Assembly: GCF_000189635.1 (NCBI RefSeq)
Contig: NW_002476353.1
Span: 496,001 to 560,000 of the forward strand
DNA: 64,000 nt
Reading direction: 5' to 3'
From: Tetrahymena thermophila SB210
Taxonomy: Eukaryota > Ciliophora > Oligohymenophorea > Hymenostomatida > Tetrahymenidae
Shown here: positions 49,901-57,364 of the stretch, piece after piece
Layout of the letters: every line of letters starts with the position of its first letter
How positions within the stretch are numbered: position 1 is the first letter of the stretch
Notes under the pieces: generated by a model
The model's database searches: none
Told to the model about the DNA's origin: nothing
Seen by the model: the letters and a program-made list of their open reading frames with translations, nothing else
Position numbers and translations under genes: made by a program

Positions 49901-52113
49901 ATGGTAATATCCAATTTATTTATCGATTTGACTTAATTATAAACTCTATTCAAAAAGAAAAGGGATTAACAAGAATCTGAAGAAGAGAGCGAGGAAAGTG
50001 GGGATGACTCTGATTCTGTCGAGGTTTAGAGGGCAACAAATGTTAGGGCTAAATCATATCATGATTCAAATAATGTTATTTTAGGAAAAAGATAAAGGAG
50101 AGAATCAACCAAACATGCCAAAGGTAAGTTCATCTCTAAATTAACAATTATATAATTTCTTTAATGACTTAGAATGACAATCATTTTAATAATTTAAAAA
50201 ATAAGATGACTTGATAGGATTTAAGGAGAAAAAAAAGAAGCGCGGTAGAAAAGCTAAAAAGAAAAAACCTTTGCCAATAGTAAATAATTTAGATTTAAAT
50301 ATTTAAAAACAAACCTTTCTTAATTTAATTTATGCATATATTATAAATATGATTTTATAAAAACAATGTAAAATACTTTCAAATTTAAATTAAAAATCAC
50401 ACTAAATTGATAATGATTTTATTAGTAGAAAAAGAAGGGTCGCAAGAAAAAGAAAGTCTCAAAAAAAAGTTAAAAAAATGGATAGTTGAGGGGAAATGGT
50501 GAAAAAAGAGAAAAAAAAGAGAAAGGAGAGAAAGTTATTAAAGAAAGATCTAAGGTAAAGGTAGAGGATGAAGATGATGAGTTTAGACATCAAAATCCTA
50601 ACTTGATTCATCTCTCAAAGCTAAATAAAATATTTGTTTTGCACAGCAGTGAAATAAGAGCAAACAAAAAAGACAAAAAAAAGCTATTTCAAAATACCTT
50701 ACTAGCTAAAACACCAGAAGAAAAAAGAACCTCACAATCTATCATCGAATGTGATTTAAGATACTTTGATTTTACTTATTTGACAAACATATTTGACTCG
50801 TTTGATGGTAATTGAATATTCAATTTAACAATATATTTATTTTTAATTTTATTTATTCAAAAAAATTTATTAATTAAAAAATTTTATTTTATTAAAATAA
50901 AATCAAAACTAATTTAATTAATTTTAACGCTTTTAAATTGTTAAAAATTTAGTTGTAATGATTGCTCCACCATTTGATGCAATATCGATTTAAGAAGTAT
51001 TTGAACTAAAAGTGGAGTTGATCTCTAAGCAAGGATTTCTTTTTTTCTGGGCAAAAGATGTTCCAACAGCTACTTCATATGAAATAATGTCTAAATGGGG
51101 ATATGATGTTATTGATCAAATTATTTGGGTGAAAATCGATAAAGTAATTTAACTAATTACTAACATTTTGTTTTATTTTATTTTATTATTAGAATGAAGG
51201 GAAAATGATTTTAGAAGACAAGCCAGACAAATATTTTTATAATTCAAATGAAATGTGCTTAATAGGTGTCAAAAAGCACCCTTCCTCAAAGGGAGTTGAG
51301 TATCAATCAAAGGTATCAAACAATATCATAGTTTCTCATCAACCATAGAATTAATCTTGTCCAGATTAAATATACGATATTATTGATTTGATGATGCCAG
51401 GAAGCAAAAAAATAGAACTTTTTACTAAACAGAAAGTAATCAGAGGAGGCTGGTTTGGGTTAGAGCATAAGTTTTAACCAGAGATAAACTAAAGTAAAAA
51501 TTTAAATCAACAAATCAATACTAAAGAATCAGATAAAGCAGCTCATTTTGATCATACTAAAGTCTAAGATATTCAAGCTATAAAAAATAATTAAATTCCT
51601 ATTTTCAATTAGTAGCAATGCCTTAAATGTGAGATGAAACCAATCGTTGGGCTGTATTTTTCTTGTGAAACATGCAAGATAGATACTCAGAACTCTTTCT
51701 CTATATGTAATTTTTTCCTAAATTAATATTTTTAAAGTTATTTTTTATTTTAATTATAGGCTAAGATTGCTTCTTTAATACATCTCCAAAAGAATTATTT
51801 ATTGGAAATCATAACGAAAACCATAAATTAGAAATTGTTCACGAAATACCTCAATAAACTTATAAATAAAAAGTAAATAAATTAATTAATTAATATCAAT
51901 TATATAAAGAATCAACTCATTTTTAAAAAAAAGCTTAAATGCACGAATATATCTTGTTAGAAAGATTTATCATACTCTTTAGTACACAAATGCTTAACCT
52001 GTTTTGAATTGTACTTATGTGAAAAGTGCTATGCAAACCAAAATAAAGTTAAGCTTCCAAATACCCTCAAGGATTCACATTAATACTACCATGATTTTTT
52101 TATGATTAAATGA
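49901..52113 (+). CDS. MT-A70-family (MTA9/AMT-like) protein, catalytic motif degenerate, with two ZZ-like zinc fingers
   Basis: MT-A70 proteins methylate N6 of adenine in RNA or DNA, usually as a catalytic and a non-catalytic pair. The N-terminus is acidic then strongly Lys-rich (KEKKKKRGRKAKKKK), suiting DNA binding. The methyltransferase fold shows YFDFTYLTNIFD, then VVMIAPPFDAISI where active enzymes have DPPW, then GFLFFWAKDVPT, WGYDVIDQIIWVK and DLMMPGSKKIELFTKQ, GGWFGLEHKF. APPF replaces DPPW, so it should be a non-catalytic partner, like Tetrahymena MTA9. The C-terminus adds two Cys/His clusters: CLKCEMKP..CETC..CQDC..HNENH, then CTNISC..CLTC..CEKC..HQYYH, matching ZZ-type fingers. 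It ends HDFFMIK. About seven exons. The first intron may start at 49904; the frame is open either way. Confidence 0.87.
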
Positions 52114-56421: not shown

Positions 56422-57364
56422 TCACCTTCTAGTTGACTTTTAAATTTATTTTTGCTTTTCGGTGGCTTTTGCAATGAAATTTTATTTATCTAGATAGCCT
56501 GCTTTTCTATTTTGTTCGAATTTCTTTTCCAACTTTTCTTTTTTAGTGAAAGACTTCCAATCAAGTTTTGATTTGTGTATTGATGTTATGCTCTTTGATT
56601 TACTATTTATTTTATCCATAACTTTTTATAAGTATTAAAATCTATTTTTCATATCTAATCTATGTTTTTCTTCTTAACCAAGCTATTAAATTACTTCTTA
56701 TACTACTTCAACTTTTTCTACTTTTTCTACTTTTTCTTCTTAGACTTCTTAGACTTCTTACACTTCTTCTTTATTATTTTCTTCAACTGATTTTAAAAAA
56801 TACATTTTATATGCTATTTCTTGCATTAAATTTATAATTATTACTAATTATTTCTTATGGTTCTTCCTTTTTGCTTTCGATGATTTCTTCTTTGACATTT
56901 TTGGATTCTTCAAATTTCATTTAATTGATTTCCTTGCTTTCAAAAAGCTAAAATTCTTTTAAATAAGCCTACTCATCTGCTCTGCCTACTATTTCACCAC
57001 TAGAATCTACTATAAACTCTTAACCAGCGAATATTACTTTTCTTTATTTATCATCTTCGTTTAAGCGAAGTGCTTTTTGGGCTATTTATAGTAAAAGATC
57101 CTTATCTTTTAACAGCATCTATGTTTATTTCCTAATTTCATTTATTTAATTCATTTCTTTTTCTCTAACTTCCTTCTTTAATTCAATCCATGATTATAGT
57201 ATCTCTTGATGCAGCTCCTCTTAATTCTTTTTTTTTTTTAAATCTTTGAGTTCTTTCTTTTCTCTCTTGTATTCTTCAATTTCGCTTGCTTGAGGAACAT
57301 AATCTTCATCTTCTTCTTCCTCCTCTAAGTCTTATAAGTTAATTTTTAATAGACCCTCTGACAT
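56422..57364 (-). CDS. CFDP1: BCNT/CFDP1/Swc5-family protein (SWR1/SRCAP complex subunit)
   Basis: Members help the SWR1/SRCAP remodeller place histone H2A.Z in chromatin. The start MSEGLLKINLQDLEEEEEDE runs into DYVP, the acidic entry typical of the family. A Lys/Glu-rich helix and an FAGQEFIVDSSGEIVGRADE segment follow. After an intron near 56800-56850 comes another acidic region. The C-terminal BCNT domain is clear: SIHKSKLDWKSFTKKEKLEK then AGYLDKQNFIAKATEKQKQI, ending STRR. Length near 285 residues fits the family. With the ISWI and MT-A70 genes this is the third chromatin gene of the window. Confidence 0.9.

What the first reader, a model, noticed from the sequence alone, without database searches (positions are those of the whole stretch)
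49901..52113. Pseudo-catalytic MT-A70 protein carrying two ZZ-like zinc fingers
Seen: an MT-A70 fold with APPF where active enzymes have DPPW, preceded by a very Lys-rich region and followed by two Cys/His clusters of ZZ type. Known: Tetrahymena DNA 6mA needs a catalytic MT-A70 plus a non-catalytic partner. Inferred: the fingers could read histone tails or SUMO and steer a 6mA complex to certain chromatin, an adaptor design worth testing.
Basis: partly seen in the sequence, partly recalled or inferred. Interest (0 to 1): 0.75.

Follow-up and report, generated by a model that had tools for sequence, protein, structure and literature searches.

The report
Tetrahymena AMT5: dead methyltransferase, zinc fingers
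This is AMT5, a known Tetrahymena gene tied to placing adenine methyl marks on DNA; its enzyme site looks broken, so it probably acts as a helper subunit rather than an enzyme.

Summary
A seven-exon gene (49901-52113, +, TAA/TAG=Q) encodes 553 aa: a Lys-rich N-terminus, an MT-A70 domain reading APP-F instead of DPPW, and two C-terminal ZZ fingers. The genome is Tetrahymena thermophila. The gene lies beside the genome's only BCNT/SWC5 match, as published tags demand (SWC5 TTHERM_00136450, AMT5 00136470). So it is AMT5, a named member of the known AMT2/5 family (MT-A70 plus C-terminal ZZ).

AMT5 looks enzymatically dead. Asp395, Trp398 with its loop, Lys513, Arg536, Asn539, Asn549 and Gln550 (METTL3 numbering) are lost; AMT2 and all 56 other aligned relatives keep DPPW. 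One relative outside that alignment, P0026, is also degenerate. AMT5 lacks the first two of the four fingers seen in full-length relatives, and the two kept lack the acidic residues of known ZZ readers.

Best reading: a METTL14-like non-catalytic partner, most likely of AMT2, in de novo 6mA; a review credits both genes, the primary paper was not readable. The partnership is inferred. AMT2 and AMT5 both lie beside SWR1-complex genes, which is unexplained.

The parts
49901..52113 (+). AMT5 gene, exons 49901-50123, 50218-50279, 50429-50807, 50953-51143, 51193-51706, 51760-51872, 51934-52113
   Evidence: identity and tags in PMC8265677 and PMC5844071
50084..50578 (+). Lys/Arg-rich arm, about residues 62-145, with RGRK-type AT-hook-like runs (by eye; Pfam gave no AT-hook)
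50732..51477 (+). MT-A70 domain, about residues 197-380
50964..50975 (+). APP-F in place of DPPW; catalytic loop deleted after APP
51358..51360 (+). Cys 341 in place of the family's Lys (METTL3 K513)
51424..51474 (+). stretch in which R536, N539, N549 and Q550 are replaced by K, V, H and K
51607..51836 (+). ZZ finger 1 (third finger of the family), ligands C428 C431 C443 C446 C457 C460 H474 H478, split by the intron 51707-51759
51934..52110 (+). ZZ finger 2 (fourth finger of the family), residues 495-553
56425..56631 (-). BCNT domain of SWC5, the neighbour that identifies the locus

Best explanation
The gene is T. thermophila AMT5 (TTHERM_00136470), a fast-evolving member of the AMT2/5 family of MT-A70 proteins with ZZ fingers. 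Its methyltransferase domain has lost the catalytic motif, the catalytic loop and nearly all SAM contacts, so it should neither bind SAM nor methylate. It most likely works as a non-catalytic partner that pairs through its MT-A70 domain with the active paralogue AMT2, as METTL14 serves METTL3 and MTA9/AMT7 serves AMT1. Its Lys-rich arm would hold DNA and its two remaining ZZ fingers would serve assembly rather than histone reading; the pair would lay down 6mA de novo in the new macronucleus. Shown here: identity, domain make-up, loss of catalytic and SAM-contact residues, absence of two fingers. Inferred: the AMT2 partnership, the DNA contact, the role of the fingers.
For: Identity: TERT fragment 135 of 137 aligned residues equal to T. 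thermophila; only BCNT match of the genome next door. Dead site: D395, W398 and K513 are present in 57 of 57 aligned relatives, N549 in 56, N539 in 54, R536 in 53, Q550 in 40, and all are changed or missing in AMT5; it keeps 1 of 7 strict site columns against 28 of 46 other conserved columns, P 0.038. AMT2 of the same genome is intact. Eroded partners are the rule in solved MT-A70 pairs: NALW in MTA9 (PMC9852454, passages). AMT5 knockout did not change vegetative 6mA while AMT2 knockout cut it by 37.8% (PMC6245762, section 9); a review says de novo 6mA needs both (PMC13297926, passages).
Against: No interaction was seen by me. A recombinant AMT2 fragment methylated a GATC probe alone in vitro, so AMT5 is not strictly required for AMT2 activity. 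With a wider definition of the site the enrichment of losses is not significant (4 of 11 kept against 25 of 42, P 0.19). The branch is long (1.17 against a median of 0.17) and no close orthologue of AMT5 appeared in the protein searches, so wide conservation of the pair is not shown. The review and others call AMT5 a methyltransferase.
Confidence: 0.55

Rival explanations
1. AMT5 is a dead methyltransferase that acts apart from AMT2, as a chromatin scaffold or as an alternative partner of AMT1.
For: Dead site as above. PMC12695648 (section 6) notes that AMT2/5 often co-occurs with AMT1, hinting at a partnership. AMT5 lies beside an SWR1-complex gene.
Against: AMT1 is reported to work with MTA9/AMT7, p1 and p2 (PMC9852454), and its paralogue AMT2 is the nearest active relative in the genome. 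Nothing here shows an AMT1 contact.
Confidence: 0.2
2. One reading: the two ZZ fingers read histone tails or SUMO and steer a 6mA complex to chosen chromatin.
For: ZZ domains of HERC2 and p300 are solved with H3 or SUMO1 tails (listed); the fingers are real ZZ folds.
Confidence: 0.12
3. AMT5 is an active methyltransferase with an unorthodox site.
For: The literature groups AMT2 and AMT5 as methyltransferases; D377 and the domain's structural residues are kept.
Against: Catalytic Asp, the Trp loop and the ribose and methionine contacts are all gone; changing DPPW alone nearly abolishes AMT1 activity (PMC11760949, passages).
Confidence: 0.08
4. AMT5 is a decaying gene without function.
For: Long branch; two fingers and one loop lost; no vegetative 6mA change on knockout.
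Against: Seven exons stay in frame and all 16 zinc ligands are kept; the transcript is measured and reported as raised in starvation (PMC8265677, passages); a de novo role is cited.
Confidence: 0.05

Closest known systems
AMT2 / TAMT-1 (TTHERM_00388490; C179 of this genome, L023)
   Same: MT-A70 followed by ZZ fingers; same ciliate group on the tree
   Different: Keeps DPPW and the SAM contacts, has four fingers and a Q-rich N-terminus
P0026, a metagenome protein of 518 aa
   Same: A second degenerate member: NPVW, S at 536, H at 549, K at 550
   Different: Keeps K513 and N539, has four fingers and a shorter branch; host unknown
METTL14 and MTA9/AMT7
   Same: Non-catalytic MT-A70 subunits that pair with an active one (PMC9852454, PMC9174199, passages)
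   Different: Other MT-A70 families by PMC12695648; no ZZ fingers described there; AMT5's pairing is untested
ZZ domains of PRT1, HERC2, p62, BIG and ZZZ3
   Same: Zinc-ligand pattern and fold
   Different: AMT5 fingers lack the acidic binding residues; finger 2 has a CxxxxC first pair

Membership tests
AMT2/5 family of MT-A70 proteins | MT-A70 domain | tested here: met
   Pfam E 1.4e-21, over cut-off
AMT2/5 family of MT-A70 proteins | C-terminal ZZ fingers (number not part of the published definition) | tested here: met
   Two fingers; full-length relatives have four
AMT2/5 family of MT-A70 proteins | Groups with the family on a tree | tested here: met
   In a group of 8 of 46 rows, support 96/93, with METTL3 as outgroup; AMT1, AMT6/7 and METTL14 were not in the tree
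Active MT-A70 methyltransferase | DPPW motif and its loop | tested here: not met
   APP, then an 8-residue gap against METTL3
Active MT-A70 methyltransferase | SAM contacts K513, R536, N539, N549, Q550 | tested here: not met
   C, K, V, H, K in AMT5; METTL3 numbers recalled, matching MTA1 contacts in PMC9852454
Active MT-A70 methyltransferase | Enzymatic activity | not testable with these tools
   needs purified protein
Non-catalytic MT-A70 partner (METTL14 type, by function) | Eroded active site with kept fold | tested here: inconclusive
   Erosion met; the fold was modelled for P0026, not for spliced AMT5
Non-catalytic MT-A70 partner (METTL14 type, by function) | Complex with an active MT-A70 protein | not testable with these tools
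   needs pull-down or complex prediction
ZZ zinc finger | Eight Cys/His ligands and ZZ fold | tested here: met
   Ligands in both fingers; fold for finger 2; Pfam score below cut-off
ZZ reader of histone, SUMO or N-degron type | Acidic residues CDxC..DxDxC | tested here: not met
   Sequence comparison; the residue rule is recalled

The most novel reading that the evidence does not exclude
De novo 6mA in Tetrahymena is made by a specialised heterodimer in which AMT2 brings catalysis and reader-type ZZ fingers while the dead paralogue AMT5 brings a basic DNA arm and structural ZZ fingers. The unit is tied to H2A.Z deposition, which would explain why AMT2 and AMT5 (and by tag number AMT6) lie next to SWR1-complex genes.
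Probability: 0.2. Interest if true: 0.75.

Novelty: new variant of a known kind. Interest (0 to 1): 0.45.

Why it matters
AMT5 is cited as one of the two proteins needed for de novo 6mA. If its site is dead, one of the two is a partner rather than an enzyme, and claims about its activity need a fresh test. It would be a further active/dead MT-A70 pairing after METTL3-METTL14 and AMT1-AMT7, here arisen within one family. How 6mA is first targeted in a new macronucleus would become testable by separating catalysis (AMT2) from the helper (AMT5).

Tried and rejected
Kinship to MTA1, MTA9 or MTA9-B: not favoured. The best protein hits are AMT2/5 proteins, and in the PDB METTL3 (E 1.2e-21) scores above MTA1 (about E 7e-16).

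Sequencing error at APPF: rejected. It would need several base changes plus a missing loop, and five further contact residues differ.

AMT1 in G000: not found by PF05063 (8 matches in 4 loci), by a METTL3 piece (7 matches in the same loci) or by a DNA pattern for DPPW (6 sites; 3 in the MT-A70 genes on C179, C190 and C248, the other 3 frames not MT-A70-like by eye). Unresolved.

YL1_C (PF08265) gave no match in G000 or the controls; YL1 (PF05764) gave one.

AMT6 beside ARP6: ARP6 was located on C57, but an MT-A70 profile found nothing above noise in two 7-kb flanks. PMC12695648 says that AMT6/7 can be missed by the Pfam model, so this link rests on published tags only.

More degenerate members: of 121 proteins listed (one search found 140 and listed 120), 56 were aligned, all DPPW; P0026 is NPVW and was added later. 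The other 64 were left out: 32 show DPPW (six of them, P0116-P0121, look METTL3-type) and 32 have no DPPW string and, by the first 70 residues printed, seem to start past the motif. One search added 11 proteins; P0122-P0125 were inspected, all DPPW, the other seven were not.

In the Fisher test five of the 18 'lost' columns outside the site are finger columns cut off from the AMT5 row; this works against the claim made. The wider-site test was not significant (P 0.19).

Papers not held, so not read: Cheng 2025 (PMC12077518), Wang 2019, Wang 2025, Sheng 2024, Beh 2019. I therefore do not claim that AMT5's dead site is unreported; I only did not meet it in the passages read or the listings.

Full report
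What is there. Under the ciliate code the window holds a seven-exon gene at 49901-52113 (+) for 553 residues. Its introns are 49-149 bp, start GTA, end AG and are poorer in G+C (0.08-0.19) than the exons (0.30). The protein has an acidic then Lys/Arg-rich N-terminus, an MT-A70 domain (Pfam E 1.4e-21; in the PDB METTL3 E 1.2e-21, MTA1 about 7e-16, METTL14 3e-14) and two C-terminal Cys/His clusters.

The clusters are ZZ fingers. Pfam's ZZ score is below its cut-off (13.1 against 21.4 bits). The stretch matches the solved PRT1 ZZ domain at E 2e-4. The last finger lies in one exon, 51934-52113, and is predicted at mean pLDDT 92.2 with a 20-row alignment. Its best PDB neighbours are ZZ-bearing: SAGA Ada2/Gcn5 module chains, KCMF1, HERC2, dystrobrevin, BIG, PRT1. 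The leading ones have Foldseek probability near 1 but E-values of 0.016 and above, none reaching 0.001, for a 59-residue model. Its eight ligands are invariant columns of the 20-row alignment. Zinc is not modelled, and finger 1 was not folded.

Which gene it is. A TERT fragment of the same genome equals T. thermophila TERT (6d6v) at 135 of 137 aligned residues; the two differences are at an exon edge. PMC8265677 (passages) gives AMT2 as TTHERM_00388490 and AMT5 as 00136470, both with several C-terminal ZZ fingers. PMC5844071 (section 7) gives SWC5 as 00136450 and SWC2-like as 00388500. The only BCNT match found in the genome is in the window at 56425-56631 (-), 4.3 kb past the finding with one apparent gene between. 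The only YL1 match is about 3.1 kb from the end of my model of the other MT-A70/ZZ gene, on C179. So the window gene is AMT5 and the C179 gene AMT2. AMT2 has DPPW, as Luo 2018 reports for 00388490 (PMC6245762, section 9). The other MT-A70 loci seen are a METTL3-like gene on C190 and a METTL14-like gene on C248, named by eye.

The family. Three searches listed 132 proteins (one search found 140 and listed 120), most with both Pfam domains, among them entries named Ichthyophthirius, Paramecium and Galdieria. The full-length relatives aligned carry four fingers. PMC12695648 (section 6) names the family AMT2/5 and calls its fingers of unknown function. On a tree of 46 rows with active-site columns removed, AMT5 falls in a group of 8 with AMT2, the Ichthyophthirius and Paramecium proteins and P0026 (96/93). 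Its branch is 1.17 against a median of 0.17, and its sister is not resolved. METTL3 was the outgroup; AMT1, AMT6/7 and METTL14 were not included.

The dead site. In the alignment of 57 members (56 found proteins plus AMT2), D395, P396, P397, W398 and K513 are present in 57 of 57, N549 in 56, N539 in 54, R536 in 53, Q550 in 40. The 56 were picked by a pattern that asks for PP followed by W, F, Y or L after a CD-R/K start, so NPVW was missed and is treated apart. AMT5 has A395, no W398 (loop deleted, F aligned with Tyr406), C513, K536, V539, H549 and K550; it keeps D377, E532 and F534. MTA1's SAM contacts D182, D209, S332, R357, N360, N370 and E371 are in PMC9852454 (passages); the METTL3 numbers are recalled. 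AMT5 keeps 1 of 7 strict site columns against 28 of 46 other conserved columns (P 0.038); with a wider site, 4 of 11 against 25 of 42 (P 0.19, not significant). The case rests on which residues are gone more than on that statistic. P0026 shows a second, milder loss (NPVW, S536, H549, K550; 4 of 7 against 41 of 46, P 0.06), and its model still matches METTL3 and MTA1.

The fingers. AMT5 lacks the first two fingers of its relatives. AMT2's second finger matches BIG, HERC2 (solved with H3 and SUMO1 tails) and p62, and has the acidic turn KDFDLC. At that place the AMT5 fingers have NSFSIC and FELYLC, and no Asp follows the first Cys. This speaks against histone reading by AMT5 and points to AMT2 for any reading; the residue rule is recalled.

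How it most likely works. METTL3-METTL14 and MTA1-MTA9 are active/inactive pairs; in MTA9 an eroded NALW motif can be mutated without obvious effect (PMC9852454). AMT2 and AMT5 are the two ZZ members known in T. thermophila, one intact, one dead. Vegetative knockout of AMT5 left 6mA without significant change, that of AMT2 cut it by 37.8% (PMC6245762). [quoted passage not shown] the primary paper was not readable). A dead subunit needed along with an active paralogue is the simplest account. Against it, a recombinant AMT2 fragment worked alone on a GATC probe, no close AMT5 orthologue turned up, and I saw no interaction data.

An unexplained neighbourhood. AMT5 lies 4.3 kb from SWC5 and AMT2 about 3.1 kb from SWC2. 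By published tags AMT6 (01005150) is four steps from ARP6 (01005190). Of 60 AMT-SWR tag pairs 3 lie within five gene steps (0.02 expected with 27,000 genes, a recalled round number); of 125 AMT pairs with the other chromatin genes of the same table none does. This was noticed after the fact, the third pair could not be verified in the assembly, and no functional link follows from it. A paper search on SWR1, H2A.Z, 6mA and gene clusters listed 10 of 21 papers, none on this by title.

Verdict. Observation and coordinates are right. The gene and its architecture are known; the evident loss of activity of AMT5, with the absence of its reader-like fingers, is the part worth a specialist's attention.

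Noticed in passing
window 56425-56631 (-) and L041 (C179:328814-329641): Both AMT2/5 genes lie within about 3-4 kb of SWR1-complex genes (AMT5-SWC5, AMT2-SWC2); by published tags AMT6 is also near ARP6. Post hoc, third pair not verified.
   Followed up: partly
P0026 (onward, sequence printed): A metagenome AMT2/5 protein with four ZZ fingers has NPVW for DPPW and, like AMT5, H and K at METTL3 549-550.
   Followed up: partly
L022 (C248): The METTL14-like gene carries DPPW, where METTL14 is recalled to have EPPL.
   Followed up: no
G000 (whole genome): AMT1 was not found by family, protein or DPPW pattern searches, although T. thermophila has it.
   Followed up: partly
L023 4383-6758 (C179): An open frame past AMT2's last finger holds a KKRGRLPKLK AT-hook-like run; Ichthyophthirius AMT2 (P0013) ends with QRGRPKKK, so AMT2 may have a DNA-binding tail not in my model.
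   Followed up: no
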